A stretch of DNA of 64,000 bases from Sistotremastrum niveocremeum HHB9708 (taxonomy: Eukaryota > Basidiomycota > Agaricomycetes > Sistotremastrales > Sistotremastraceae), in NCBI GenBank assembly GCA_001630475.1, contig KV419419.1:191871-255870 (forward strand), read 5' to 3'. The translations under genes were made by a program, and so were the position numbers. The notes below the pieces were generated by a model, which saw nothing but the letters and a program-made list of their open reading frames with translations, searched no databases and was not told where the DNA came from. Positions 4,113 to 38,870 of the stretch are shown piece by piece. How positions within the stretch are numbered: the stretch's first letter is position 1; every line of letters begins with the position of its first letter.

Positions 4113-4169
4113 CCTTAGTAGGTTTCCCTTTATTGCTTTTGCAATTTATTTCTGATTTTCTGGCCTCAG

Positions 4170-4755
4170 GACCTGAGGGCATGGGGTGTTCTGCACAATG
4201 GATACCCCGGAGAGGAAGACAATGATGAGTTGGTGGGAGAAGACTATGTTCAGAATTATTTTGGGGATTTTTACAATGAGAATCGAGCAAATCCCCAAGC
4301 AGATGAAGACGACGAGTAATGCACTCTTTAGTTTGCAGGTATAGGGCTGACATCTGCCTTTCAGAGAGGCTGTTGAAGAGGCAGAAGATATCACCGACAT
4401 TGACGAGATTGATCATAATCTTGCCGTCAACTTCAATGCTGAACGTCGACGAGTTCCTCGTATCCAATGCCCCTTTGACAGCCAGAGAGTCGTCAATCAC
4501 CTGTTTGATGCCATTAACAGTGCGCAACAGGCTGAGTATGTCCCTCCTGGTTACAAATATTTTCCAGGCGAACATGGCTATGTCGAATGGGATCCAAGAT
4601 CATATATTACAGTGAACCGTCAAGATGTGTCTGTTACACTCCCAGGAGAAGTATGGGTACCTAGACTAGCTCAATGGATAAGAGGGGTCCATTTTCTTAC
4701 TCAATTGCTGGTGCAGGCAAATATACAACCAGCTGCAGCACCGGCGATAGGATAA
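4170..4755 (+). pseudogene. C-terminal remnant of an unrecognised gene
   Basis: Two exons can be read: 4170-4315 and 4365-4755, joined by a 49-nt intron (donor GTAATG, acceptor TTTCAG) in phase. The first exon follows a good acceptor (GGCCTCAG). Together they encode about 178 residues ending in a stop. The product is acidic at first (DNDELVGEDY, then a DEDDE stretch), followed by a region with FDSQRVVNHLFDAI and YVEWDPRSYITV. I do not recognise the family and assign no function. Upstream coding sequence is missing: the CTCGAG palindrome array lies where the rest of the gene should be. It could be a transposon-borne gene, but nothing proves that. Confidence 0.4.
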
Positions 4756-4891: not shown

Positions 4892-5110
4892 GCCGGCGCC
4901 TAAACTCGTTGTGGCCAACAAGGAGTTTAGCCGAAGCGACCCAGGCGTCAACTGACAGACAAACTAACTAAATGGTATCACTGAGTCGAAGTATATGTAT
5001 TTCAACCTATTTACACATAATTAGGATGTACTGCATGTTCGAGACCTAGTCGGTGGTCGACATTCTGGCTGTCACACTCGTTGGAGGCTCCAACGAGTTT
5101 AGCCGACGAC
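4892..5110. repeat. Two related hairpins about 170 bp apart
   Basis: The block ACTCGTTG...CAACRAG-GAGTTTAGCCG occurs twice, at about 4904-4933 and 5076-5107. The second copy is a perfect 10-bp stem (ACTCGTTGGA 5076-5085, loop GGC, TCCAACGAGT 5089-5098). The first is imperfect. Both are followed by TTTAGCCG and a GA-C rich segment. No gene is evident. Confidence 0.6.
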
Positions 5111-5139
5111 CAACGGAGGTCACCGAACAGGTCGTCTGA

Positions 5140-5930
5140 CTTGCCCAGTTGGGTGCAATGATTATGGAATGAATTTCCTTTTATGGTAAGCGATCGTACT
5201 TCGGAGTGTCATGACCTGTGACTTTTCCAGATTTATGCATATATGCTACTTTATTAAATTATTCTAAGGCTGTCCCTACTTTACACTAATCAAAATATAA
5301 TCTACACTACTGTTCTACACTATATACACTAATTATAATATGCAAGATCATAATTCTGTTAGAGGAATCAGAGATCGATAGGGAATAATGAATAAATAAA
5401 TAAAAGTCACTTACGTCGTTCGACGAGCATTATCCGAGACTCAGACCCTTCCTATTCTTCACATCCATAATAGAAGTCTTGATCCAAAAGGGTGAACCAA
5501 CGAGAATAGCATGCTATAGCCCCCTGAACCAACTGAACTCCACAGACACCTCAGTCACATGGAATGGCCCGGCGAGAACACATTCCACATGAAACAGGGC
5601 CTGATCCCAAAGGGACCCAGAACATCCCAGGCTCGGCGAGCCCAGAAGCTGAGGGATTGTAGCAGGGAGTGGGCACCGATAGGGAATTTTGAGGTCGACG
5701 ACCTTGCTCTCCCCTACCATTGGTCCCACTCCACAGCTGTCCAGCCCGCCAAACGCGGATTAGTTACGTGTATAATATGAATATATACTCACCCGAATTT
5801 TTGTTTGATTTTATTCGCGTCGGGGAGGCCAATATCGAGGGGGGAACGCGTCGGCGTCGGGAGGGAAGGCGGGAGGCGGGAGGGAGCGGATTTCGAAGTC
5901 CGCTCGAACATTGGACGACGCGCCTCCGAA
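5140..5930. other. Gene-free stretch
   Basis: No gene recognised. A 73-codon open frame (5559-5780) is rich in polar residues but has no known motif. The right third (5820-5900) is a G-rich, CGGGAGG-repeating sequence. It may be promoter DNA of a lost gene. Confidence 0.4.
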
Positions 5931-5933
5931 AGT

Positions 5934-5976
5934 CACGTGCTCACGTGATCGTCACGTCACGCTAACAGGTCACGTG
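5934..5976. promoter_or_regulatory. Three CACGTG boxes in 43 bp
   Basis: CACGTG occurs at 5934-5939, 5942-5947 and 5971-5976, with two more CACGT half-matches between. CACGTG is the standard E-box bound by basic helix-loop-helix proteins such as Cbf1. The cluster is visible in the sequence; its use as a control element is inference. The nearest intact gene downstream starts at 7869, about 1.9 kb away. Confidence 0.4.
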
Positions 5977-6172
5977 ACTCCGGCAAGACTTTCGGCACGG
6001 CACGTTGGGCGTTTACGATTCGGCAAATCGCCCTTGCCAGCTCATCGCTGTGAGGGCAGCAACGACGTCGTCGTCGACGACAACGACGAGGGGGGGAATC
6101 AAGTAAGTTTATTCTTATTCTAGATTATTCTACTGACTATTCTATAGCACCTTTCCCTTCCTCCCACCTTAC

Positions 6173-6293
6173 CCGACGATGGAATAGCTTGATGCTATTC
6201 CATCGTCGGTCCTTGTTGCGCAAGGCCTGACTCGATGTCAGGCCTTGCGACCACGACCACGACCACGCTCGGATGACTCGACGTCATCCGAGC
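6173..6293. repeat. Array of three perfect hairpins with 5-nt loops
   Basis: Three unrelated perfect inverted repeats follow each other. Stem 1 is CCGACGATGGAATAGC (6173-6188), loop TTGAT, complement 6194-6209. Stem 2 is CGCAAGGCCTGAC (6219-6231), loop TCGAT, complement 6237-6249. Stem 3 is CTCGGATGAC (6269-6278), loop TCGAC, complement 6284-6293. The stems differ in sequence, but all loops are 5 nt and fit TYGAY. They do not look like one repeat copied three times. Confidence 0.9.
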
Positions 6294-6334
6294 CTCGTCA
6301 CCCCTCGTCAGCCCTCGTCCGCCTCCGCCTCTGC

Positions 6335-6440
6335 CGCCATCGCCATCGCCACCGCCATCGCATCGTCATCGCATCACCATCGCATCACCATCGCATTGCA
6401 TCACCATCACCATCGCCGCTGCCATCACCATCACCCACTG
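6335..6440. repeat. Imperfect (CATCGC/CATCAC)n simple repeat
   Basis: A run of CATCGC, CATCAC and CACCGC hexamers. It produces His/Arg/Ser-rich open frames on the + strand, which I regard as by-products of the repeat. It lies directly after the hairpin array. Confidence 0.8.
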
Positions 6441-7111: not shown

Positions 7112-7619
7112 TAGTGTTCTGAGGTCCAGTCACGACTGGACTTTTGACCCCCGGAGGGTGCGACTGGCAACTGCCGGTCCGGTTGCCGTCCAAAATTTGG
7201 TGTGACTGGCAACTGCGACTGCGGTTGCGGTCCGGCGACCGGTCACGACTGCGACCAGTTGCGCAACCGGTCATGGCCACTTTTTCCAGTCACAACTGGT
7301 CTTTTATCAATATTTTAATCATTATTATATTATATAGACTGTATATACACCTCATATGGTATGTTAGATGCATATAGAGACCAATATATACCAGATATGT
7401 CACTATAAACAGCCATTGAGACCCAAAATACCCTCTGGGTACCCTGGTTGGGGACCCTTAAGGGTCCTCGGTTGCGACCACGGTCACGACCGGTCATGAC
7501 TGCGGTTGCCGGTTGCCTGATTTTCCAAGAACCTAGGCGACCGGCAACTGCAGTCCGGTCACGGTCCGGTCGCGACTGCCGGTTGCCACCGGTCACGGCA
7601 ACTGGACCTTGGAACACTA
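7112..7619 (+). mobile_element. Non-autonomous hAT element, copy 1 (508 bp)
   Basis: The ends are TAGTGTTC...GAACACTA, with an 18-bp terminal inverted repeat (two mismatches). An exact 8-bp direct duplication, ATCGTGAT, flanks it at 7104-7111 and 7620-7627. Eight-bp duplications and a TAGNG start are hallmarks of the hAT superfamily. The arms (about 170 bp each) are GC-rich with repeated CCGGTCRCGACTG and GGTTGCC words; the centre (7290-7460) is AT-rich. No transposase frame is present, so it depends on an enzyme encoded elsewhere. It lies about 250 bp upstream of the dioxygenase start codon. A near-identical copy in inverse orientation is at 10003. Confidence 0.92.
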
Positions 7620-7868: not shown

Positions 7869-10800
7869 ATGGCACAACCACAACGACCTTGCGATATTGC
7901 CCGACGTACTCGCCTCCTCGCCGAACGTGCGCTTCGTGTCCCCACTGCGAAAGAAGCCCCTGTCCCTGCCCCAGACATTCAAGATCTTAATATGTCTGAA
8001 GGAGTCGATCTGTCCGGAATGCAGCTCATCGACGACCTGAACGTGATCGACGAACAGGCTTTTCTCAAGCATGGCGAGAAGGTGCTTGATAAGTTTGACG
8101 AAGCTCTTGCTAAGGGACGTGGTATGTGTGTTTACATGTTCTACATCACCGACAATCTCATTCTTCAGAAAAAAAATAGACCAGCTAATTTGACTCCTGA
8201 GTCCTCCTGAGCGCTCAGGAGCTGAATTAGCTGGTCTATTTTTTTCTGAAGTTTCGCTTAGGGAATCATGTCATCGATGGTGATCTCACCTTCGATGACT
8301 ATGGTCGTCGCCCCAAATCAAAGAAGCAGACTGCCAAAGCCAAGCTCCTACACCAGCAGCGCCTTAAGGACGGTAGTTATCGTCCGGTGCGTAATTCGGG
8401 TGTCTGGAAGGATCGCGACGGCAAGATAGGTATTGTTTACCTATCTTGGGCAGACCTTGCCTCCGGCAAAGACATAGCCTGGGAAGGCCTCCCCGTACGC
8501 TTTGTTGCTCTTTTTATTTACTTTGTCTGACACCTTTCACGTAGCCCGGTCTCCAGAATCTCGGGATCTGGGCAAGCCAGCAGCTCTTTGCCGAATGCCC
8601 GTGTCGACTTGAAAAGAAGAAAAAGGGTATCGACCCTCGTCACGAGATGTATCGTGAGCTCTCGGATGTCCTTGGTGTGGAGTGTCTCTGCAACAAGGAT
8701 ATACCACCTCCCAGTCCGTTGCTAGGGATGACCGAAGGTAACCCTGCCCTTCAAAATAAAATACGGCAGGCTTGGCAGGAGCGCGTCAAGGCACGATGCC
8801 AGCGCGATTCAGTGTATGTCCACATTATCTAACTCTGTATGTGCGTCTTTCTTACTGGTTGAAAGTGGAGTCAGCCCCGGTTACCTCGACGGGAAGGAAT
8901 GGACCGAGAGCGAGCTTGAAGTTTTGGGGCAGGAGGATTTTGAACCGGTCGACGAGGTTGACGAGGACGATGATGTAGTGGAGGATGTGGGTGATTCAAC
9001 CGGCGATCCTAATGATCCAACCAGGCTCGGTAGTAGTGATGCCGAAGTCCGGTTCGGTTCGGTCCTTGAGCCCTCGAGCCCGAACCTCGAACCGGACTTC
9101 GGTTCGGTCCTCCCTTTAGTGCCCGGACCTGAACCGGACGCAGCGTCCGGTCCTCAAAGCGTCCGGTCCGGTTCGAACGCGGTCCGGACGCTTTGAGGAC
9201 GCTTTGAAATAAATTTTTCTTTTCGTAGAAATCTTGAGGGCACGCGCGAGATTATCGTTTGAAAAGAAGATGTGTAAGTTGAGCAGTAGTTCACTAGGTT
9301 CTATTCGCGACGACGAAGGTACTTGTGAAATTGTAAAGTCTTGAAAGGAAACACCACCAGCCGGGGGCGAATGCAGATCGTGCGACAGAGACTAGGACGG
9401 GGATGCAGAGAGTTATGCGGTGATTGTGTCATTTTCGTACAGATGACGGGATTGAGAGACGGAGAGAGACGAAGAGAGAAGTTAGCACGAAGTTTGAGAC
9501 GAATGAATAGAAGAGGAACCGCACCATAATCATCAATACAATCTTTCATCGCATCTCACATCCTCCGTATCTTCCTTTCTCCTTCTGTTTCCAATCTTGA
9601 AGTTCTTCAAGACCTACAGGCCTTCCGGCCTTTGATCACAGGCCGACCCGAATGTGTTCTCATACGTGAGACAACGGCACAGACCTGATGATAGTCTGGC
9701 GAAGAGGAACACTCGCCAGCGAAACGGGTAGAAACGTGTAAGATGGCAATAAAGTATCGTCACACAGGATCGAGAGGCCAGGACGAACGGAGCCTGAACG
9801 GAGGCAAAGCACGGTGGAACAATTTTGATGACGGATGATCAGACAATGATGCGGGTTCTCTTTCTACGCTAGACACGGAAGAAGAAGATAAGTCGCCAAG
9901 TGAAGAGAATCGAGATGAGCCTTCGAGAGACGCAGTTTGAGCTGAAAGATATCCGACTGGCTGCAGGGCTGTGGACGTGTTGAGCGAGCGATGACGAACA
10001 CCTAGTGTTCCAAGGTCCAGTTGCCGTGACCGGTGGCAACCGGCAGTCNNNNNNNNNNNNNNNNNNNNNNNNNNNNNNNNNNNNNNNNNNNNNNNNNNNN
10101 NNNNNNNNNNNNNNNNNNNNNNNNNNNNNNNNNNNNNNNNNNNNNNNNNNNNNNNNNNNNNNNNNNNNNNNNNNNNNNNNNNNNNNNNNNNNNNNNNNNN
10201 NNNNNNNNNNNNNNNNNNNNNNNNNNNNNNNNNNNNNNNNNNNNNNNNNNNNNNNNNNNNNNNNNNNNNNNNNNNNNNNNNNNNNNNNNNNNNNNNNNNN
10301 NNNNNNNNNNNNNNNNNNNNNNNNNNNNNNNNNNNNNNNNNNNNNNNNNNNNNNNNNNNNNNNNNNNNNNNNNNNNNNNNNNNNNNNNNNNNNNNNNNNN
10401 NNNNNNNNNNNNNNNNNNNNNNNNNNNNNNNNNNNNNNNNNNNNNNNNNNNNNGCCGGACCGCAACCGCAGTCGCAGTTGCCAGTCACACCAAATTTTGG
10501 ACGGCAACCGGACCGGCAGTTGCCAGTCGCACCCTCCGGAGGTCAAAAGTCCAGTCGTGACTGGACCTCCGAACACTACGAACACCAGTGACGCCAAGTC
10601 ACTGGTTTTGAGTTATAGCTGGTATGAGTGACACCAAGTCACTCATACCGCAAGCGTGCAACGACAAGCACCAAGCTTGTCGTCGCGAGCGGTTGCTGCC
10701 AGAGGTATTTGATGAGGGAGGGGATGCGGTTGCTACCACGTTCTGGGATTAAGGGGCGAGGGCTAAAACATGGTTGAATATTGTATGTCGCGAGTTGAGA

Positions 10801-12204
10801 GTGGTGAATGTGTCGAAGACGAGAGCCAACGGGTCCTGACAGCAATGGTGTGTCGCAGAGCAAGGGAGAGCTGCTGGCGCGTTGTGGTTGTTTGTTAGGG
10901 TACGGATATAACGGCGTTAACGATCTCTGCAGTCCGAATCATCAATATATCACCGTTTCGACTTTCTGTAACTCAAAAACCGTGTTCTTTATAAGATAAC
11001 TGGTGCTTGTTCGACCATCGGTCCGCGGTTCGGTTCGGTTCGAACCGCGTCCGGGCTGCCAGGCAAATAGCTCGAACCGCGGACCGAACCGTTGGTCCCC
11101 CAGGTCGAACCGAACCTGAACCTGAACCGGACCGCCGGTTCAGTTCGGTTCGGACCGGGTTCGGACGCTTTGCCGGACCGGACGGCGGCATCACTACTCG
11201 GTAGCTCGTCCTCTGTCTCTCTGAACTCTTGCTTATTCCTTGTTTGCCAGGTCGTCACGAGAATGATCCTCATCGACAGTATCATTTTGAGGCCTGTGGT
11301 CTCACACATCTCGTTCATGCCTGGGTTGCGTCAGGTCATCAAAATTCTGTGAGCTCGTTTTCATTTTTCAACTTCTGCGCTCATGAATCATTCAGCCGAA
11401 CGCAAAGCTCGTGCCATCGGCACAGATGCTTGGTGCAGGAACAGCTCACCGGGCTGCCGCTGTCAAGACCCACCTCTACAATACCCGTATCCTCCATGAC
11501 TATGTAGCTATGTGTCTCCGACGAACCGTCCCTTCAGAGTACAACAAGGCCAAACCCGTATACGATGCAGGCCAGTGGATAGCCGAGGATTCTCCAGATG
11601 GGTTTGCTCTTGGTCGAGCAATCCTCTGGAAATTGCAGGTTGCAATTCATCGGGACACTCAGGACGGTCTTGGTAATTTCTGTGTTGCCTTTAATCTTGG
11701 CAGATGGGTAGGCGATGGCAGGTACGGCGGAGGAATGGCTTTTCCTGATCTTGGTTTGATGTTTGAGTACGTCTTTCTTTTCTGTTTGTTGAGTTAAATT
11801 GATGCAGTCTTAGATATCCACCGGGTTCGATTCTCATCTTTCGTTCGGCTGACCTCTTCCATGGAGTCATGCCGTGGCAGCCGGACCAGTGTCGTGGTGA
11901 TAGTATTACTCCAGGCCGTATTTCTTGGGTCATGTTCACCTCTCAGGCCGCTCGTCGTATTCTTGCTGGTAAACCTCCTGATTGGTTTGTTACTACTAAT
12001 CAGGGGCAGAACGCGTATCAGGTACAGCAACTCGAGTTAAAGGTGGCTGCAGATCGTGAGGCTGCAAAGGTTGCGGAAGCAAAAGAGGCTGAACAGCTTG
12101 CTAAGGCTGCTAAGCGGAAGTTGGCTAGACAGGCGCGAGGGGAGGACGCAAAGGCCAAGAAGGCTAAGGCGTCGACTTCGAGTAGTACTTTAGATGAAAT
12201 ATAG
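7869..12204 (+). CDS. TET/JBP-like 2-oxoglutarate/Fe(II) dioxygenase
   Basis: Seven exons keep frame throughout: 7869-8121, 8262-8494, 8545-8813, 8866-9029, 11251-11348, 11396-11766 and 11808-12204 (594 residues). The catalytic core is in the last two exons: HRD (His424, Asp426), GGGMAFPDLGL (450-460), YPPGSILIFRS, LFHGV (His481) and GRISW (Arg500). That gives the HxD...H iron triad plus the distal Arg for 2-oxoglutarate, in the layout of fungal TET/JBP proteins, which oxidise 5-methylcytosine in DNA. No key residue is missing. Residues 250-306 are acidic and the C terminus (about 535-594) is Ala/Lys-rich, possibly a nuclear signal. Introns are 41-52 nt except two that hold mobile elements (8163-8251 and 9034-11196); without these they would be about 51 and 50 nt. 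The substrate is inferred from the family only. No KDZ-type transposase, a frequent companion of such genes, lies nearby. Confidence 0.75.
8163..8251. repeat. Foldback element inside intron 1 of the dioxygenase gene
   Basis: The 28-nt left arm (8163-8190) and 27-nt right arm (8225-8251) are complementary except for one extra A in an A run. The arms start CTTCAGAAAA and end TTTTCTGAAG. The centre holds a second, perfect 18-bp palindrome, CTCCTGAGCGCTCAGGAG. The element takes up 89 of the 140 nt of intron 1, and the remaining 51 nt match the size of the neighbouring introns. I see no clear target duplication. Confidence 0.85.
10003..10578 (-). mobile_element. Non-autonomous hAT element, copy 2, nested and inverted
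   Basis: It has the same ends as the element at 7112 but lies in the opposite orientation. The flanking duplication CGAACACC is exact (9995-10002 and 10579-10586). The sequenced arms match copy 1 with 2 differences in about 171 aligned bases, so the two copies spread recently. The centre is an N gap. It sits inside the larger hAT element at 9034-11196 and is therefore the younger insertion. Confidence 0.92.
10049..10453. other. Assembly gap (405 N)
   Basis: A run of N inside the nested hAT element. Copy 1 at 7112 predicts that the missing part is an AT-rich centre plus portions of both GC-rich arms. Confidence 0.98.
10584..10683. repeat. Second array of three perfect hairpins with 5-nt loops
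   Basis: Stem 1 is ACCAGTGAC (10584-10592), loop GCCAA, complement 10598-10606. Stem 2 is GGTATGAGTGAC (10621-10632), loop ACCAA, complement 10638-10649. Stem 3 is ACGACAAGC (10661-10669), loop ACCAA, complement 10675-10683. As in the array at 6173, stems differ while loop length (5) and loop sequence (RCCAA) are constant. The array starts at the target duplication of the nested hAT copy. Confidence 0.9.
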
Positions 12205-12216
12205 GCTAATTAGTCA

Positions 12217-12308
12217 TTTTTTCTCTATCTCCCAATCATACTGTGTAGGTCTGATATGGCATCTGACATGTCGACTTGCCACATCAAGATTTGGAGATAG
12301 AGAAAAAA
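12217..12308. repeat. Foldback element just after the dioxygenase stop codon
   Basis: TTTTTTCTCTATCTCC (12217-12232) pairs perfectly with 12293-12308. A weaker inner pairing, GATATGGCA with TGCCACATC, extends the structure. It begins 12 bases after the stop codon, so it is probably transcribed in the 3' untranslated region. Its arms are unrelated to the foldback in intron 1. Confidence 0.75.
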
Positions 12309-12399: not shown

Positions 12400-12848
12400 C
12401 GTTTGCACCATTGTGTGTGTTTTTATTGTTTGAACCATTGTGTGTGTTTTTTTTTTTTTGAAAATTGTGGTCATTACGCAAGCTGTGGGTGAAACAAAGC
12501 TCTATGTGTGTGTGATAAGTGCGCCTGGAAATACAAGAAAACTGCATGTGTGTGTGTGTGACGACATGACTCTTTTTTTAGTCCACCAATCCTTTGTGTA
12601 CAAAAATTGCAATATCTGGACCGTGTGTGCAAAAAAAAATCTGCGGTAAGAAACACACACACATGAGGCAATGCACTTCACACACAGTGAAGGGTGAGCA
12701 AAAGCACCAATAGACGGCAACTATTTGGATATTTGATTTATTTGAAAAATGATGTGCGCATCAAAAAATATATATGAAAAAACACTGTGTGTAGTGAAAA
12801 ATGTGCTCTGTGTGTGAAATTTGATTTTTTGTGGAAATCCACCATCAT
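12400..12848. mobile_element. Partial copy of a TG/CA-rich TIR element
   Basis: The right end (about 12815-12848) matches the right end of the element at 14428-14462 almost base for base: GAAATTTGATTTTTTGTGG, then AAATCCACCATCAT. The body shares TGTGTGTG and ACACACA runs. I cannot find a matching left end, so the left border is a guess and the copy may be truncated. It abuts the 3' side of the LINE remnant. Confidence 0.5.
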
Positions 12849-15145
12849 AGTACTGGGTCCCCATATGGGAACGACCGGGTCTGTGTCACCCCGAAGGGCC
12901 ACAGGCTACGTAGCATGGGGACCATTGAAGGGCGGAGACCCAACTTCGGTGCCACGCACTACTACGCAACAGATCTACCTATAACTAATATATATACATG
13001 CAGCAGAAGCCGAGGGAGCCGTTAAAACCTTCCACAGCAAACCCGGTGGGTGAATCCACAGAAGGAAAGGTATCCCCCCGCAGTAACAGGACCTACAAGC
13101 GCAGCACAACGTAACTACTAAACACACAGAGTTCATTACCAGTGAGGCAAAGGCACGGAGAGAGGGGAGAGCTGGCAGAATGGCAGGAAGAAGTAATATT
13201 AAGGCAGCAAATAGGCTACAAAGAAGTTACAAGGGGATCGTAGGGACATAGAGTGGGACCTGTTTAAAGCGACGAAAAACTGCGCAGATGTATGCAGCCA
13301 CAGTAGGTAGCAGAGCTTCCTGGTTGAGAATGGAAAGTAATAGGAAATCCAGATCTTGTCTGGCAAAAGGGTGGAGAAGGCCGGGGTCAATGACCAGTGC
13401 CGTGCGGAGGAAGTCCCGGCGCAGAAGGAGTAGATCGTGGTCGGCCATGCATCCAAGCAGGGCATGACTCTCGTTCTCAACTACTGAGCGACAGAAGCGA
13501 CAGAGGCGGAGTTCGCGTGGTAGGCGAGGGTGTCCGCGGATAGCGCGACGCAGTTCCTCAATTGCGAGAGTGTGTGCAGAGAAGAGGAGCTTCGTGAGTG
13601 CCACCCGGTGGTTGTAGTTAGGGAGGGAGAGGTATGAGCGAAAGCGAGGAGCGAAGTCGTGGCGTTGGCAGTTTCGGGTTGCACGACGTGACTCGACGTC
13701 TAGGAAGCCAGTGATGAGGTTGATCTTTGTCAGCTGACTGGCTGCATGTCCTTGAAAGCGATGTAGGTATAGCGGTGGATTTCCACAAAAAATAAATTCA
13801 CACACACAGACCACTTTTTCAACACACACAGCCCAAAAAACAGTAATTTTGCAACGTCCACCAGATTCCTAACCCTAAATTTCCCAGGTGTGCGTGTGTA
13901 AAACGTGAAAAATGTCTGTGGAGGGATATTCTGCCAACAAACTGGGGAATCTCCACAAAAAGTGTTTTTACGCACACACACCTCATTTACACACACAGAG
14001 CCAATTCTGACCCTAGTCCATGAACATGTGCATGCTTGTGTGCATAAAATTCGAGTAAATTTCCTTTTTTGGTAATTAAAATTCCGCACACAAGCACAAT
14101 TTTGTTACACACCGACACTTTTGGGCCTTGTGTGTGAAATTTAATTACCATAAAAGGCAATTTTTCCGAGTTTGAATGATATACACACAGTGTGAGTCAA
14201 GGGTCCTGGGGTTAAAACACAGCATTTATTGTGTTTGTGTGTTTTTTGTGGCAGTGTGAGGAAAAAAACATTTTTGTGGAAATGTAACGGAGTTATTTTG
14301 CCACACATGAATTTGTTGATTTTGCGCATACAGCCCAGAAATTCCAGGGTCCTAGGGTTAGGAAATTTGACTGCGCATGAGAATTTTAGGGAAAATGGTC
14401 TGTGTGTTGCAAAAACTGCCACTGTGGGTGAAATTTGATTTTTTGTGGAAATCCACCATCATATGTAGGGAAGGCCGAATTGAATTGCGCACAGAGTCAA
14501 TGTGAGCATGGGACAGATTCGAGGGGTCGAGGGGCACAATGAGCCCAGCGCGGGAGCACATCACAATAAGGTCACGGAACCAACCTCGTCTGTGTGGATG
14601 AGATTGCGAAAGAGCAATCGAAGACATTAGAGCCTGATGCGACGGACGGACGGTAGGGAGAGAGAGAAGGAATTGTAGATATCGCAGGCACAGCTCGACG
14701 CGGCGAAACAGAAGCGGCCAGAGACCAGTTTCTGAGAAGAGGAGACAGAGAGGTGCAAATGAATTGACCCCAAGAAGACGTCGCAGGTACGTATGCTGCG
14801 CCGCCACCAGAGGGCCGAGCAAGTCGTCGGAGACATCAGGAGAAATCTCACATGCATATGAAAGGTAAGGGTCCACAAGGGATTTGAAGAACATAATGCC
14901 ATCATCCACGTCGAGTGAGGCGACATCATTGGCGAGGGAGAAGATACGTCCAGAGACAGCACGCGCTTTCAGCGCTTGCGCCTCAGCGTGCGGCTGAAGA
15001 ATGTCAGGATGATCAGAGGTAAGCATAGCACCAAGATATGTGGCATCCAGGCACATTGGCAGTGGCTGTCCATCAAGAAAGAAGGGCGGGTAGGGGGAGG
15101 GTGTAGCTGCGAACGGTGTCCAGTAGGACTTTCCCACGTTGATTG
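12849..15145 (-). mobile_element. 5'-truncated LINE (non-LTR retrotransposon) remnant
   Basis: Read on the - strand, two coding blocks belong to one non-LTR reverse transcriptase protein. The block at 15145-14470 carries INVGKSYWTPF, YLGAMLTS and a long helical region typical of the thumb and following segment. The block at 13760-13227 carries the C-terminal Cys/His segment CRFCRSVVENESHALLGC. The polymerase core (FADD) and everything upstream are absent, as expected for incomplete target-primed reverse transcription. A TIR element (13768-14462) interrupts the frame; if it and one duplication copy are set aside, the two blocks join in phase as SLH-RFQ. The 3' limit is uncertain; 12849-13226 may be its 3' untranslated region. 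The 5' end stops exactly where repeat R1 begins. Confidence 0.7.
13768..14462. mobile_element. TIR element inserted into the LINE (695 bp)
   Basis: The ends GGTGGATTTCCACAAAAAAT and its complement form the terminal inverted repeat. ATGTAGG is found at both borders (13761-13767 and 14463-14469), which suits a 7-bp target duplication, although 6 or 8 bp with a mismatch cannot be excluded. The interior is full of TGTGTG, ACACAC and GTGTGTAAA words and has no transposase. I cannot assign a superfamily. A second, incomplete copy ends at 12848. Confidence 0.7.
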
Positions 15146-27549: not shown

Positions 27550-28086
27550 CCCGTCCGTGTAGTGTGCAGTGAGCACGAAATTCCAATGAACCGGTCTTGA
27601 CGCCCTTTGCGGACCTTTCCCTGACGAACGAAACGTGTTTTGACTCTGGACAGCTTTCAGCCAATTGCTACAGCTGCAGCATCCAAGAAGCAATCAATAT
27701 CACATCACTTACTAGCAAGACGTCTGCGCCTTGATTTTACGAGATAGGAATTCTCTATCCTCGAGCGGAATGAACGGTGAATTTCGGAATATGTGAGTGA
27801 GATAATCGAGAGAAGGCGTCTCGGTGGCTGAGTTTCAAGTTGAACGTTGAACCGGTGTCCAATGAAGCTTTTGCGAATTCATGACGGGTTATTGGGAACA
27901 TCCCGAAGTCTCGATTTTTTTGGTGGTCACGCAATATATTATGAGCCGGATGACGATAACTAATACCAAAAGTAATGGAGGAGATGCCTAAGAATGAAAG
28001 GAGTGGATCCACACAACCACGCTGACCAGTGACCTTCGCAAGCGTAGCTATAGGGCGAATTGCTCCTTGAAACTCATTAGAGGCTT
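27550..28086. other. Intergenic stretch
   Basis: Nothing recognised between the 5' end of F-box copy C and the 3' end of the xylanase gene. An open frame here is only a read-through of the xylanase 3' flank. Confidence 0.35.
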
Positions 28087-29775
28087 TCACAGACATTGAG
28101 AGTAGTCTGGAGAATAAATTCAGAATAAGGAACCGAATGAAAGATCGTAATAACTGACATGGGTTGGAAGCCTTGCAGGTATATCCTCCGGAGCAGCTGG
28201 TCGGGCCAGTCCAGCCAATACCACCACACTGTCCCCAATGAGTCTGTTGAGCACCAGTTGAAGTGGTCGTGGTGCTCGTGGTCGTCGATGACGTAGTCGT
28301 GGTCGTCGATGACGTAGTCGTGGTCGTCGACTTGGAAGTTGAGGACGATGAGGAGGATGACGAAGAAGAGGTCGTGGTCGACGAGGAAGATGAAGAAGAT
28401 GAAGAAGTACCGGTACCAGCGGTAGCTTGGCAAGAGCTGGAGCCGAGGGCGGTGGCGCACATCTCGGAAGCGCCGGAGGCGTATCGTTGAAGACGGGCGG
28501 CGACTTCGTATGCGGCGAGTTTGGGGTTACCGTTGGAGTCGAAGAGGGTTCCGGACTTGCTGGTACCGAGCCAAGAGAGATCGTCACGGGCATCCCAGTT
28601 GATGAATTCCCAGCAGTTGGAGGCGTAAAGGCAAGCCTATAAAGGTATATCAGATACTGATGAATGAGATTAAGAATGATCGACGTACATCGAGGTAGTC
28701 ACCCCAGATAGCAGCCTGATAACGAAGGTTGGCAGAGCTGGTGCTGGAGACGGCGATATCGAGCTCGGTAACCATTGCGGTAGCACCGAGGGCAGCGAGC
28801 TTGGCGAAAGTAGCCTCGAGGGCAGACTTGGCGACGAATTGACCGGTAGCGGCGGTGATGTGCGACTGGAAACCGACTGCGAGACGGTTGTAGGGGACAG
28901 CAGCGTTCGCGTTGATATCAGCGAGAACGGCAAGGACGCAAGCGGTCTTGGCGTCGTTTCCACCAGTGCTGTAGTCGTTGATGGCGAGACGGGTGCTGGG
29001 GCCAGCGTATTGGAGGGCGGTTGAGAACGCGGCGTGGACGAAGGAGAGATCGGTGACGAGGTTGGTGCTCGAACCGTCGGAGGTCTGAGTGGGCCATGAG
29101 TTTTTGTTTTTCACGCATTGCCATGCGGTCTATAGTATGCCATGAGTATGAATCGACACAGACGAGAAGAGATTGCCTACCATGCCGTTCGAAGTGCCAT
29201 CACCGACGATTTCGTTGACGACGTCCCAAGAGGTGACGGAGGCACCCATGCCGGAGATTTCTTGTTGGACGTGTTGAGGGATGACGTTGGTGACGAGGTC
29301 GGTGGCGGTGATACTTCCGGGCAACCAAGACTGGAACAAGTAATTTAGAATGAAAACGACCAACACGTTGGTCTGTACTCACGGGGGTCTGAGAATGCCA
29401 GAAGGTGTTGTGGCCACGGAAAGTAGCACCATGGCTGGTGGCGAAGGACTGAGCTCCTTGGCATGAAGTCAGACTGCTCACACCACGAGTGGGCTCGGTA
29501 GCGTCCCACTTGCAACCGTTCTCAGCGACTAAGTGGTTGAAGAATGGGCCGAAGACAGTTCCGAGCCAACTGTTGTCATTCGAGTACGTGTCGTAGGTCG
29601 AACCGAAGTGGAAAGTTCCACCCTTGCGAGAGGAGACGCTCTGGAGAACAGTTTGAAGGTTCGGGGTGCCGGTGGTGGAATAACCAGGTAAGTCGATCAA
29701 GAGAGAGACGGCGGGTTGAGCGAGGGCCGGGGAGGCAACGATGGCCAAGACAACGAAGGACGAAAGAGCCAACAT
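28087..29775 (-). CDS. Secreted GH10 endo-1,4-beta-xylanase with C-terminal CBM1
   Basis: Five exons in frame (transcript order): 29775-29383, 29330-29181, 29129-28689, 28636-28159 and 28106-28087, for 493 residues. Residues 1-20 are a signal peptide ([20 protein letters not shown]). The GH10 domain shows [19 protein letters not shown] with the acid/base Glu171, LAINDYS and VTELDI with the nucleophile Glu303. A Ser/Thr linker (about 400-458) leads to a CBM1, [20 protein letters not shown], ending NPYYSQCL. The last exon is only 20 nt and supplies the final aromatic and Cys residues of the CBM1. The enzyme cuts xylan outside the cell, and CBM1 binds cellulose. The early segment reads [11 protein letters not shown] where family members usually have ENAMKW. 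TTATAAA lies about 50 bp upstream of the start codon. Confidence 0.95.
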
Positions 29776-29823
29776 CTTCGGGGGTGTCGATTGAAGATGG
29801 AGAGCTCATAGCATTCGACGTCG

Positions 29824-33995: not shown

Positions 33996-36900
33996 ATGTC
34001 CTCTTCGTCGTCCGGGAAGGGTCTGAGGCTATTGTCTCTTGGTAAGCTTCATTATCCCACAGAAGATGCTCGTTAAGACTCGAGATAGATTCTGGTGGTG
34101 TTCGAGGACTATCCATGCTTTTGATACTGAAAGAAATCATGCATCGCGTTCAAATTCAAGAACCTGAGAATGACCCACTTTTACCCTGTCAATACTTCGA
34201 TCTTATAGGAGGTGCTGGAACGGGCGGGTGTGTCTAAGATCCAGAGACGATTCAAGATATTACTGAAGTCATCAAAGGCTCATTGCACTTCTGCTCGGAA
34301 GATGCGGTGTGACAGTCGACGAGTGTATCAAGATATATGTCGAGCTGGGTCCCACCGTATTTCAAGATGTCGTCAGATGGCGCGGAGAAGAGCGTTTCAA
34401 GGTGACGAATCTAGAGAAAGAGTGGAAGAAGATCATGAAGAATTTACTGAAGGATGAAAATGCTCGGATGATGGATCACGGGAACCATCCTCACTGCGAC
34501 ACGTGCGTCTACGTCTCCTCCAGCTCATCCGATCGATATCGTGAAATCAATGTTGATCAGTTTCGTCTGCGCGATGTCGCCACACAACCTCAACCCTGCT
34601 AGCCCTCGACTTTTCTATACTTACAATGCTCCCAAGTATCCTTCCTCCAACTGCATGATATGGGAAGCGGCCCGCGCAACAACTGCTGAACCAACGTTCG
34701 CTGAGTCCATCGAGATTGACGTTACCGGACCCTTGAAGGAAGAATATATTGGTTCCAGTACGGGCAACAGTAACCCGATTCATCAAGTCTTGGAACAATC
34801 TGCTCTTCTTCACCCGTTCCGGGATGTGGCTTGTGTCATTAGCATTGGGTCGGGGAAAGCAGGTATCATTTCACTGCCGCCTCCACGAGCAATCTTCCCT
34901 CGCATGATTCAGCCGGCCCATATCATCAACGCGAGTCTCTTGCGGACAATGGCTACCGATACTGATCGTGCTGCGGAAGAAATAAGCAAACGATTTGGGA
35001 GCGCTGTTGGACCCTATTTTCGACTCACAGTCGAACACGGCCTTCAGAACATCAAATTGAACGAGTGGGACAGGTTGCAAGATGTTACAACTCATACTCA
35101 ACAATATCTACGTCTCGCAGAAACAGATCACAAGGTGCATCTTGCGGCACAACATCTCTTCCGTGCGCCACGGCTTCTTTCAAGCATTGCTGCTGGTAAG
35201 ACTTCAACCATAATAACTATGATTTTGATAAATTTTTGAATCTCTGACTGATGTAGGTGGTCTTATCCAACTGAAAAGCAGGCTTGCCCAGTTGACTTTG
35301 AAATCATGTCCCCTTCCAAGCAAAATATTCACAGGGCGGCTTGATATCCTGGAGAGAATGACTTCCTTCTTTGATCCGGTCTCAGACAAAATGAGAAGAA
35401 TATTTGTTATCCATGGTGTTGGAGGGAGTGGCAAAACCCAGACAGCTTATAAATTTGTTGACCAAAGAAAATCATGGTGAGATGGTGTTTGAGTTTCCTG
35501 ATGCTATTCTTACAGACTCAACTGCCCCAGGTTTTCAGCTGTTGTTCTCATTGATGCCACAAACAAAGACACTTGCGAAGCAGACTGGATGACAATTGCT
35601 CAGGCTGCACAGACTGAGGCAAATGCAAAGGCTGCTGTACAGTGGTTGTCCCAGCAGGAGGATAATTGGATGATCATCTTCAATAATGCTGATGATCCTA
35701 AATTCAACCTGAGACCATATATTCCAGACTGTGCTCATGGAAATGTTGTCATCACTACCCGAAACCCTGAGATGGTGATATATGCTTCTTCTCAGGATGG
35801 TGAATGCAATCTTCCCATGCTATCCAACTCAGAAGCGTTGGAGTTATTCTGGAAAGCATCTCACAAACCCATGTCTGATGAGAATGTAGCACTTCAATTA
35901 CTGGAGGTGATGTATCATTATTCACAATTCAAACATTGCTCATTGTGCAACAGAAAATAAACAATCATTGTCTTGCCATTGTTCAGGCTGGTGCTTACAT
36001 CCATACCCTCAACTATTCAATACAAGACTATCTGCAGCTATATATGGAAAGTCATCAAAGACAAGATGAACTTCTATTGGAAAATCCACGTACCCAACAA
36101 TATGATGACTACGAATATGCTGTTTACCCCACCTTTGAGATCAGTTACCAGCACCTCCCTGCAGTAGCAACAGTTGTGCTTCAACTTTTTGCCTGCTTTC
36201 ACTATAATCACATCTCTATCAGCATCTTCAAACAAGCCTACCAGAACATGTCATCCCTAGATCCCTTGACTGATGAAGAAGCAGTTGATCTTGCTGCTGT
36301 CTTGGTGTTTTTCTGCAGATTCTCATCCACCAATGACTTGGAATCCAAATGGTCTTTTGACCTCTTGGCATTTAGAAAGGCACTCAGAGAGCTCACTTCA
36401 TACTCCTTGATCACCTATGATCAGGGTAATGAAGATTACTCTCTGCACACCCTGGTCTACAAGTGGGCATACTCCAAAATAGATAACATCAAAGCAAACC
36501 AGTCTCTAGCCCAGTATATTCTTGGCCTCTCTATTGAGGACACCTCAATGGGTGGGATCACAGAACAGCTTTCCTTGCTGCCCCATCTTCAGCCTGCCTT
36601 ACATGCTAGCTTCCCAACAAGCCTTCCTCTTGCAGATAATTTGAGTGCAATATTCTTCAATACAGGCTTGTTCCGCAAGGCAATGGATCTGAGGGCAAAG
36701 ATTACAGAAAATTATAAGGAGCTGTTGGGAGAGGATCATCCTGACACCCTTGCCAGCATGGGAGACCTTGCCAGGTCATATTCTGCTCTGGGAAAGGATG
36801 CTGAGGCAGAGAAGTTGGAGAGGATAGTGCTGGAGAAGTGCACAAGGCTCTTGGGAGAGGATCATCCTCAGACCCTTGTCAGCATGGNNNNNNNNNNNNN

Positions 36901-38870
36901 NNNNNNNNNNNNNNNNNNNNNNNNNNNNNNNNNNNNNNNNNNNNNNNNNNNNNNNNNNNNNNNNNNNNNNNNNNNNNNNNNNNNNNNNNNNNNNNNNNNN
37001 NNNNNNNNNNNNNNNNNNNNNNNNNNNNNNNNNNNNNNNNNNNNNNNNNNNNNNNNNNNNNNNNNNNNNNNNNNNNNNNNNNNNNNNNNNNNNNNNNNNN
37101 NNNNNNNNNNNNNNNNNNNNNNNNNNNNNNNNNNNNNNNNNNNNNNNNNNNNNNNNNNNNNNNNNNNNNNNNNNNNNNNNNNNNNNNNNNNNNNNNNNNN
37201 NNNNNNNNNNNNNNNNNNNNNNNNNNNNNNNNNNNNNNNNNNNNNNNNNNNNNNNNNNNNNNNNNNNNNNNNNNNNNNNNNNNNNNNNNNNNNNNNNNNN
37301 NNNNNNNNNNNNNNNNNNNNNNNNNNNNNNNNNNNNNNNNNNNNNNNNNNNNNNNNNNNNNNNNNNNNNNNNNNNNNNNNNNNNNNNNNNNNNNNNNNNN
37401 NNNNNNNNNNNNNNNNNNNNNNNNNNNNNNNNNNNNNNNNNNNNNNNNNNNNNNNNNNNNNNNNNNNNNNNNNNNNNNNNNNNNNNNNNNNNNNNNNNNN
37501 NNNNNNNNNNNNNNNNNNNNNNNNNNNNNNNNNNNNNNNNNNNNNNNNNNNNNNNNNNNNNNNNNNNNNNNNNNNNNNNNNNNNNNNNNNNNNNNNNNNN
37601 NNNNNNNNNNNNNNNNNNNNNNNNNNNNNNNNNNNNNNNNNNNNNNNNNNNNNNNNNNNNNNNNNNNNNNNNNNNNNNNNNNNNNNNNNNNNNNNNNNNN
37701 NNNNNNNNNNNNNNNNNNNNNNNNNNNNNNNNNNNNNNNNNNNNNNNNNNNNNCAGCATGGGAAACCTTGCTTCCTCATATTCTGCTCTGGGAAAGGATG
37801 CTGAAGCAGAGAAGTTGAAGACCATAGTGCTGGAGAAGCGCACAAAGCTCTTAGGAGAGGATCATCCTCAGACCCTTCTCAGCATGGCAAACCTTGCCAC
37901 ATCATATTCTGCTCTGGGAAAAGATGCTGAAGCAGAGAAGTTGGAGAGGATAGTGCTGGAGAAGCGCACAAGGCTCTTGGGAGAGGATCATCCTGACACC
38001 CTTATCACCATGGCAAACCTTGCGTTCTCCTATTCTGCTTTGGGAAAGGAAGCTGAAGCAGAGAAGTTGAAGACCATAGTGCTGGAGAAGCGCACAAGTC
38101 TGTTGGGAGAGGATCATCCTGACACCCTTGCCAGCATGTCACACCTTGCCAGATCATATTCTGCTCTAGGAAAGGATGCTGAAGCAGAGAAGTTGGAGAG
38201 GATAGTGCTGGAGAAGCGCAAAAGGTTCCTAGGAGAGGATCATCCTGACACTCTTGTCAGCATGGCAAACCTTGCCACATCATATTCTGCTCTGGGAAAG
38301 GATGCTGAAGCAGAGAAGTTGAGGAGGATAGTGCTGGAGAAGCACACAAGGCTCTTGGGAGAGGATCATCCTTCCACCCTTTCCAGCATGACCAACCTTG
38401 CCACATCATATTCTACTCTGGGAAAAGATGCTAAAGCAGAAAAGCTGGAGAGGATAGTGCTGGAGAAGTGCACAAAGCTCTTGGGAGAGGATCATCCTCA
38501 GACCCTTCTCAGCATGGCAAACCTTGCTGCATCATATGCTGCTCTGGGTAAGGATGCTGAAGCAGAGAAGCTGGAGAGGATAGTGCTGGAGAAGCGCACA
38601 AGGCTCTCAGGAGAGGATCATCCTTCCACCCTTCTTAGTATGGGAAACCTGGCTGCATCATATTCTGCTCTGGGAAAAGATGCTGAAGCAGAGAAGTTGG
38701 AGAGGATAGTCCTCAACAAGCGCAAAATGCTGTTGGGAGAGGATCATCCTGACACGCTTCTGGCCATGAATAATCTGGCATGTACCTATGATGAGATGGG
38801 ACAATCGGAGAAAGCCCAAGCACTTTGGGATGAGTGGGAGAGGCTAAGAGTTGCAAGACTGTCTATCTAA
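33996..38870 (+). CDS. NLR-like protein: patatin-like, NB-ARC, TPR repeats
   Basis: Seven exons: 33996-34041, 34089-34227, 34278-34502, 34561-35195, 35257-35476, 35531-35906 and 35954-38870, in frame up to the N gap. Residues 16-340 are patatin-like: DSGGVRG (oxyanion hole), FDLIGGAGTGG, FYTYNAPKYPSS. The P-loop is GVGGSGKT (401-408); a Walker B-like MIIFNNADD (468-476), VVITTRNPE and CLAIVQAGAYI follow, as in NB-ARC ATPases. The rest is a solenoid of 42-residue TPRs of the form YSALGKDAEAEKLERIVLEK. The layout is that of fungal NLR-like receptors tied to non-self recognition. Two patatin residues look lost: the elbow is GAGTG (usually GxSxG), and EEYIGSSTG stands where the catalytic Asp (DGG/DGA) is expected. 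So lipase activity is doubtful. The gap lies in the repeats, so full length is unknown. No disabling change is visible elsewhere. Confidence 0.85.
36726..38790 (+). repeat. Tandem 126-bp TPR-coding repeats
   Basis: Each unit is 126 bp (42 codons) and contains GGAGAGGATCATCCT and GATGCTGAAGCAGAGAAG. Eight near-identical units follow the gap, with one degenerate cap after them; one full unit and one diverged unit precede the gap. The DNA identity is high enough to suggest recent amplification or gene conversion. Confidence 0.92.
36888..37753. other. Assembly gap (866 N) inside the TPR repeats
   Basis: The same repeat word (AGCATGG) sits 874 bp apart across the gap, 8 bp short of seven 126-bp units. 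The N length is thus probably an estimate, and the frame difference across it is not evidence of a frameshift. Confidence 0.95.

What the first reader, a model, noticed from the sequence alone, without database searches (positions are those of the whole stretch)
7869..12204. Intact TET/JBP-like DNA-dioxygenase gene in a transposon nest
Seen: seven exons in frame, His424/Asp426/His481 and Arg500 in the correct order, GGGMAFPDLGL and YPPGSILIFRS. Known: basidiomycetes have expanded TET/JBP families, frequently associated with KDZ transposons. Inferred: a functional 5-methylcytosine oxidase. Here no KDZ partner is visible, yet hAT, foldback and LINE sequences crowd the gene while its frame is preserved, which suggests selection.
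Basis: partly seen in the sequence, partly recalled or inferred. Interest (0 to 1): 0.8.

Follow-up and report, generated by a model that had tools for sequence, protein, structure and literature searches.

The report
Transposon-borne TET-like DNA-modifying enzyme gene
A fungal gene for a TET-like enzyme that probably edits chemical marks on DNA is intact and looks like old cargo of a type of jumping gene not listed as carrying it in mushroom-type fungi, so jumping genes may carry their own anti-silencing tools more widely than recorded.

Summary
The gene is real: 7 exons, 6 GT-AG introns, 594 codons, HxD...H...R in order. Tet_JBP membership is weakly supported: window core 12.2 bits, best paralogue 17.4, cut-off 34.9; the full-length scan did not list it, and no other 2OG family matched. 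The window copy keeps the gene order (integrase split by a TE nest) and a TIR-like right end at 12785-12849; no left end was found. dN/dS between the copies is 0.15 (0.115-0.205): selection, perhaps the transposon's. Integrase synonymous sites are saturated (pS 0.83), TET's are not (0.45), which suggests cassette exchange between elements. Intron 4 holds a 2.16-kb hAT whose TSD spans the 5' splice site; splicing and 5mC activity are untested.

The parts
7869..12204 (+). TET/JBP-like dioxygenase gene, 7 exons (7869-8121, 8262-8494, 8545-8813, 8866-9029, 11251-11348, 11396-11766, 11808-12204), 594 aa
11396..12018 (+). catalytic core part: HxD (424-426), distal His 481, Arg 500, invariant in 6 of 6 copies
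9034..11196 (+). non-autonomous hAT, 2163 bp, inserted at the 5' splice site of intron 4
   Evidence: TIR TAGTGATGCCG; related ends at other places
9026..9033 (+). hAT target-site duplication CTCGGTAG, first copy; holds the 5' splice site CTCG|GTAG
11197..11204 (+). hAT target-site duplication CTCGGTAG, second copy
10003..10578 (+). hAT-type MITE nested in the hAT (405 of 576 bases are N); TSD CGAACACC
   Evidence: (read directly)
7112..7619 (+). MITE of the same family upstream of the gene; TSD ATCGTGAT
8170..8245 (+). hairpin (foldback) insertion in intron 1; the C40 copy's intron 1 is 49 nt against 140 nt here
4143..4755 (+). C-terminal exons of the rva_4 (IS3EU-like) integrase gene; its core lies at C26:186010-187375, before the window, separated by a TE nest of about 8.6 kb
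4975..6347 (.). conserved non-coding block, 84% identical to C40:103497-104908 (93-95% in the middle), found only beside these two TET copies
12785..12849 (-). TIR-like right terminus of the TET-bearing element (reads TATGATGGTGGATTTCC...), 645 bp after the TET stop; candidate TSD GTACTG follows
13768..14463 (.). small non-autonomous element with TIRs of the same kind and a 6-bp TSD TGTAGG (13762-13767/14464-14469)

Best explanation
This is the dioxygenase cargo gene of an old, broken-up IS3EU-like DNA transposon. The element carries a third gene of unknown function (minus strand), an integrase-type transposase (plus), a conserved non-coding block and the TET/JBP-like gene (plus). The protein is an Fe(II)/2-oxoglutarate oxygenase: H424, D426 and H481 bind iron and R500 binds 2OG (inferred from invariant residues). 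It most likely oxidises a modified base, 5-methylcytosine being the best candidate, on the transposon's own DNA and so relieves silencing (inferred; the genome has DNA-methyltransferase-like matches). The hAT that landed on the splice donor duplicated the donor, so a GT-AG intron survives with its length raised from 50 to about 2221 nt; whether it is still removed is open. Shown: gene, invariant residues, transposon ends at the C40 copy, shared gene order, past selection, insertions. Inferred: substrate, benefit to the transposon, expression.
For: C40 copy inside an 11,514-bp unit with 25-bp perfect TIR and TSD CATCAC; the longest inverted match in 200 dinucleotide shuffles of the two flanks was 16. 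The flanks of that unit, with one TSD, read through as one open frame of 435 codons whose left part matches Plavaka transposase, 92 codons of it beyond the junction (the other two frames run 71 and 34 beyond it), as expected of an insertion into a Plavaka gene. Same gene order third gene - integrase - TET in C26 and C40; rva_4 over its cut-off in both. TIR-like right end 645 bp after the window's TET stop, with the same TIR kind and a 6-bp TSD in a neighbouring small element. IS3EU has TA..TA termini and usually 6-bp TSDs (PMC10045372, passages), and TET+ IS3EU exist in rusts and a truffle (PMC12730594). Family: the only 2OG family to match, weakly, is Tet_JBP; CcTET's Fe triad, Arg385, Tyr361 and Phe391 have counterparts H424/D426/H481, R500, Y466, F506 at equal distance from the nearest anchor (residues from passages of PMC11040006). 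dN/dS 0.153.
Against: Neither the window protein nor its paralogues reach Pfam's Tet_JBP cut-off, and the full-length scan lists only a chance match to DUF7272; no TET among PDB sequence matches. No left terminus found for the window's own element in C26:181100-196000, which holds a 1270-base N stretch. Only 2 of 6 TET-like loci have a listed rva_4 match within 13 kb and only 3 of 6 a terminus of this kind within about 2.1 kb. In published TET+ IS3EU the TET gene lies between transposase and third gene; here it lies on the other side of the transposase. The equation of rva_4 with IS3EU is recalled, not tested by a tree. CcTET's 5mC-specific Asp337 corresponds to C435.
Confidence: 0.7

Rival explanations
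1. A gene once brought in by a transposon but now kept for the fungus: the transposase of this copy is broken while TET stays open, so the host may use it, for instance to set oxidised cytosine near transposons.
For: Window TET intact, its integrase split by a TE nest; dN/dS 0.15; both insertions inside the gene lie in introns, which are 289 of 2077 native bases, about 2% by chance for two (a sum made after the fact, intron 1 length taken from C40).
Against: The figure averages over the time since two transposon copies split and need not cover the time after the insertions; the C40 sister has a stop and an exonic MITE, so loss is tolerated there; no population or expression data.
Confidence: 0.2
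2. A dying copy: the frame is intact only because the decay is recent, and the 2.2-kb intron 4 blocks splicing, so no full-length enzyme is made.
For: Intron 4 grew from 50 to 2221 nt; the other introns are 41-140 nt. If retained, the frame stops about 55 codons into the intron, before the catalytic core. The sister copy on C40 is a pseudogene.
Against: Donor and acceptor dinucleotides are unchanged and the last 46 bases of the old intron are still there (sequence).
Confidence: 0.4
3. Another branch of the 2OG-Fe(II) oxygenases, not TET/JBP, acting on a protein or small molecule.
For: Below Pfam's cut-off for Tet_JBP; no TET among PDB sequence matches.
Against: No other 2OG family matches at E up to 10 (the program's filters drop most weak matches); the C34 match runs over profile positions 38-161 of 164; TET/JBP genes are known cargo of IS3EU elements (PMC12730594).
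Confidence: 0.15

Closest known systems
TET+ IS3EU transposons of Pucciniales and Tuber (Kojima 2025, PMC12730594)
   Same: 6-bp TSD, TA..TA ends, integrase-type transposase, TET/JBP-like gene, third gene on the opposite strand to the transposase; TET in the orientation of the transposase as in three rust families
   Different: TET lies outside, not between transposase and third gene; the third gene has no Pfam match (alpha-kinase there); the ends are TATAG/TATGATGG, not TAYGG, and the perfect TIR is 25 bp (over 30 there); TET+ IS3EU are not listed there for Agaricomycotina, the likely host group here (inferred)
AG-type TET of Kyakuja/Zisupton and CcTET (PMC12730594, PMC11040006)
   Same: HxD...H...R, Tyr and Phe positions of the pocket, several copies per genome, transposon-borne
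   Different: Asp337 position is Cys435, Gly331 position is Asp429; H-to-R spacing 19 against 9; no KDZ partner
PE-type TET (PMC12730594)
   Same: Very diverged, borne by DNA transposons including IS3EU
   Different: PE has HxE; this family has HxD in 6 of 6 copies
Ds/hAT insertions that behave as introns (recalled: maize Dissociation)
   Same: hAT with 8-bp TSD at splice junctions
   Different: Here a pre-existing intron was enlarged; splicing untested

Membership tests
Tet_JBP (PF12851) | Pfam gathering score 34.9 bits | tested here: not met
   window core 12.2 bits, C34 paralogue 17.4 bits, E 0.0026, of 4 cores scanned; 1 of 6 members of A1 listed; full-length window protein not listed
Tet_JBP (PF12851) | 2-His-1-carboxylate triad and 2OG-binding Arg | tested here: met
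   H424, D426, H481, R500 invariant in 6 of 6 copies
Tet_JBP (PF12851) | double-stranded beta-helix of TET type | not tested
   Structure prediction not used: a spliced protein is not given letter for letter by the window DNA, as its rule asks
Tet_JBP (PF12851) | oxidation of 5mC or thymine in DNA | not testable with these tools
   needs an enzyme assay
AG-type TET | Asp at the CcTET Asp337 position | tested here: not met
   ungapped register gives C435, invariant in 6 of 6; a gap in the alignment could change this
PE-type TET | HxE in place of HxD | tested here: not met
   HRD in 6 of 6
PU-type TET | PU conserved residues | not tested
   the alignment figure is not held as text
IS3EU transposon (C40 element) | TA..TA termini in inverted repeat | tested here: met
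   25-bp perfect TIR TATAGTGGACC...
IS3EU transposon (C40 element) | 6-bp TSD | tested here: met
   CATCAC on both sides
IS3EU transposon (C40 element) | TIR over 30 bp ending TAYGG..CCRTA (as in the rust TET+ families) | tested here: not met
   perfect TIR is 25 bp and begins TATAG; only patchy subterminal similarity beyond it; TAYGG/CCRTA sites near the genes do not pair
IS3EU transposon (C40 element) | IS3EU-type transposase | tested here: inconclusive
   rva_4 PF24764 over cut-off; no tree made; rva_4 = IS3EU is recalled
IS3EU transposon (window copy) | two termini and TSD | tested here: not met
   right terminus found, left not found in C26:181100-196000, part of which is N
KDZ partner | KDZ transposase beside the TET gene | tested here: not met
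   19 KDZ matches at 12 places listed for the genome, none on C26 (a lower bound)
hAT (9034-11196) | 8-bp TSD and TAGNG termini | tested here: met

The most novel reading that the evidence does not exclude
A fourth type of transposon-borne TET/JBP-like enzyme (HxD, without CcTET's Asp337, outside AG and PE), carried by IS3EU elements in a mushroom-type fungus with a new third gene and a new gene order, in which a cassette of non-coding block plus TET moves between already diverged IS3EU lineages by recombination; its substrate may not be 5mC.
Probability: 0.4. Interest if true: 0.65.

Novelty: new variant of a known kind. Interest (0 to 1): 0.5.

Why it matters
Transposons that carry their own base-editing enzyme are a direct way to test how mobile DNA escapes silencing. 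A TET-like gene on IS3EU-like elements outside rusts and truffles would widen the list of carriers, and two copies whose transposases are saturated in divergence while their TET genes are not make cassette exchange between elements testable. The divergent pocket makes the substrate an open and assayable question.

Tried and rejected
Introner idea: the C40 copy has a 456-bp hAT MITE in exon 7 whose TSD (GGTACAGC) and 3' end offer GT and AG at frame-neutral places. Of 80 hAT/MITE copies fetched, chosen from the listed, paired ends had a TSD matching at 7 or 8 of 8 bases and 6 did not; 3 of 74 begin GGT, against about 1.9 expected (my product of the base frequencies printed): no sign of intron making.

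Family searches of the genome: KDZ found but not beside this gene; Tet_JBP and 2OG-FeII_Oxy_6 gave 0, but their controls rang nowhere, so this shows nothing.

The non-coding block 4975-6347: no ORF in common that I could see, one Rfam match far below its gathering score (14.5 of 38 bits), folds no better than shuffles on either strand (z +2.0 and +1.2), no tRNA in the window. Unexplained.

Is the transposase always beside a third gene or TET? One other rva_4 locus was fetched (C23, 1 of about 20 places listed): neither matched there. TAYGG..CCRTA ends at C40: no pairing. Relatives in viral contigs and genome contigs: 6 and 39 pattern matches, none confirmed. PDB: 1, 2, 1 and 0 matches, all chance-level at E 0.9 or worse and none a TET. 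Structure prediction not run.
Full report
What is there. Seven exons between 7869 and 12204 join through six GT-AG introns into 594 codons and a stop, with H424, D426, H481 and R500 in order. The genome (34.7 Mb, 111 contigs; the window is C26:191871-255870) holds at least five more copies of the family: C40 (85-87% identical) and C34, C46, C6, C33 (37-45%). Introns 5 and 6 are at the same places (within 3 residues, same phase) in all six, introns 1-4 in C26 and C40, so these are old gene copies, not chance frames or retrocopies. Fifty columns are invariant in 6 of 6, among them the triad and R500.

Family. The scan of the whole protein lists only DUF7272 at 13.2 of 27 bits over residues 36-78, a chance match, and not Tet_JBP. 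The isolated core gives Tet_JBP at 12.2 bits (E 0.1), the C34 core 17.4 bits (E 0.0026, profile 38-161 of 164); the cut-off is 34.9; the C46 core gives nothing and the C6 core only Dcc1 at E 0.17. No TET among PDB sequence matches. By distance from the nearest anchor, CcTET's His326/Asp328/His376, Arg385, Tyr361, Val378 and Phe391 (the base-stacking residue) have the same residues here (H424/D426/H481, R500, Y466, V483, F506), and Thr323 has Val421, of the kind other TETs have; Arg321, Gly331, Asp337, Leu339 and Arg393 do not match (L419, D429, C435, A437, S508) (CcTET roles from passages of PMC11040006). So: it works like a TET/JBP oxygenase with fair confidence, formal membership is not reached, 5mC as substrate is unproven. 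It is neither AG type (Asp337) nor PE type (HxE) as defined in PMC12730594 (seen: abstract and outline, parts 2-4 of 7, passages, section 4.2); PU type could not be tested.

Selection. Against the C40 copy dS is 0.69 and dN 0.106, dN/dS 0.153 (bootstrap 0.115-0.205; core 0.15, 0.086-0.231; 592 codon pairs, the one with a stop skipped). The C40 copy has a TAG at codon 104 and a 456-bp hAT MITE in exon 7. This is a pairwise figure and averages over the time since the split; it does not show that the window copy is under selection now.

The hAT. The 2163-bp hAT at 9034-11196 duplicated CTCGGTAG, which spans the old 5' splice site (CTCG|GTAG). The upstream copy can still serve as donor, so the intron grew from 50 to 2221 nt. 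The C40 copy shows the unoccupied site with a 52-nt intron. If the intron is kept, the frame stops in the hAT before the catalytic core. The length includes 405 N inside the nested MITE (576 bases against 509 in most copies fetched), so it is approximate.

The missing partner. Upstream of TET in both C26 and C40 lies a gene whose core matches rva_4 (PF24764) above its cut-off of 26 bits (C26 51.3 and 60.9; C40 49.2 and 56.3; both listed). In C40 its pieces lie together (about C40:101400-103389) and show no stop in the aligned parts, exon joins not modelled; in C26 the core is at 186010-187375 and the C-terminal exons at window 4143-4755, parted by about 8.6 kb of other sequence, part of it N. 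Before it, on the other strand, both loci share a third gene (37% over 199 aa, E 4e-46) without Pfam match. The outer flanks differ (no match at E 0.01 on the right; on the left only short or repetitive matches).

Transposon ends. At C40 the unit is bounded by TATAGTGGACCGTGTCAACAAAAAA at 97862 and its exact reverse complement ending at 109375, flanked by CATCAC on both sides: 11,514 bp, TIR 25 bp, TSD 6 bp. The longest inverted match between dinucleotide shuffles of the two flanks was 16 in 200. The left flank is a Plavaka transposase frame (56.3 bits); joined to the right flank with one TSD it stays open for 92 more codons, 435 in all (the other two frames run 71 and 34 beyond the junction, so this alone is modest evidence). 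The window has a terminus of this kind at 12785-12849, 645 bp after the TET stop, 88% identical over 65 bp to the right end of a small element at 13768-14463 that has a perfect 6-bp TSD, TGTAGG. No left terminus was found for the window's own element in C26:181100-196000. C46 has two left-type ends about 2.1 kb from its TET core. In C34, C6 and C33 none was found in the 6.0-6.5 kb fetched; C6 and C33 are alike over nearly all of the overlap fetched (79-83%). Complete IS3EU families have TA..TA ends and usually 6-bp TSDs (PMC10045372, passages). TET+ IS3EU are described in seven Pucciniales and in Tuber indicum; the rust families have TIRs over 30 bp ending TAYGG..CCRTA, and the TET gene is said to lie between transposase and an alpha-kinase gene in all TET+ IS3EU; for Agaricomycotina five other carriers are listed (PMC12730594). 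Here the TIR is shorter, the ends differ, the third gene is another and TET lies on the far side of the transposase, so this is IS3EU-like, not the same kind. One paper in the held library has both 'IS3EU' and 'dioxygenase'. The host is probably an Agaricomycete (GH10 with a CBM1-like tail, KDZ, Plavaka, short introns; inferred, species unknown), so this would be a carrier not listed there.

Cassette exchange. Synonymous sites of the integrase pieces are saturated between C26 and C40 (pS 0.825 over 540 codon pairs), yet TET's are not (pS 183.4/407 = 0.45), and the non-coding block at 4975-6347 is 84% identical overall and 93-95% in its middle. The block starts 220 bp after the integrase stop; a DNA search of the genome found it only beside these two TET copies. 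Exon 1 of TET is again far more diverged (dS 2.3). The simplest reading is exchange or gene conversion of block and TET tracts between two older IS3EU-like lineages, in line with the passive transfer between transposons proposed in PMC12730594. Strong constraint on the block is the alternative.

Mechanism. Most likely the enzyme oxidises modified bases on its own transposon and keeps it from being silenced. DNA-methyltransferase matches exist in the genome (2 matches), so a substrate is plausible. No activity, expression or methylation data were available.

Noticed in passing
L048 (C40:107826-109081) and L027:5226-5683: A hAT MITE in exon 7 of the C40 TET copy lies between a GT in its TSD and an AG made at its 3' junction, at places that would leave the frame unchanged if spliced; 3 of 74 copies with a clear TSD have such a GGT TSD, near the 1.9 expected.
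   Followed up: yes
window 4975-6347: 1.37-kb block conserved at 84-95% beside both TET copies and found nowhere else in the genome by DNA search, without Rfam family at its threshold or stable fold.
   Followed up: partly
L118:120-1364 (C40:96619-97863): Plavaka transposase frame (56 bits) that the C40 element interrupts, preceded by a hAT dimerisation match below its cut-off.
   Followed up: partly
C34:376 kb and 395 kb: One TET-like paralogue lies 18 kb from a KDZ transposase match; it is the best Tet_JBP match of the family.
   Followed up: partly
L029/L030 (C6, C33): Two TET-like copies share at least 5.4 kb at 79-83% DNA identity with a 505-bp MITE present in one only; the ends were not reached.
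   Followed up: partly
L119:404-466 and around (C26:181.5 kb, minus): A second rva_4-type integrase gene lies a few kb left of the window's TET-bearing element, where its left terminus would be expected.
   Followed up: no
window 27755-29805 (minus): GH10 xylanase gene with a CBM1-like tail; GH10 confirmed by Pfam in 2 of 2 ORFs scanned, CBM1 read by eye.
   Followed up: partly
window 35882-38870: TPR-repeat protein of NB-ARC/NACHT look (by eye), crossed by an 866-base N gap at 36888-37753.
   Followed up: no
window 12217-12308: Second hairpin-like insertion just after the TET stop codon.
   Followed up: no
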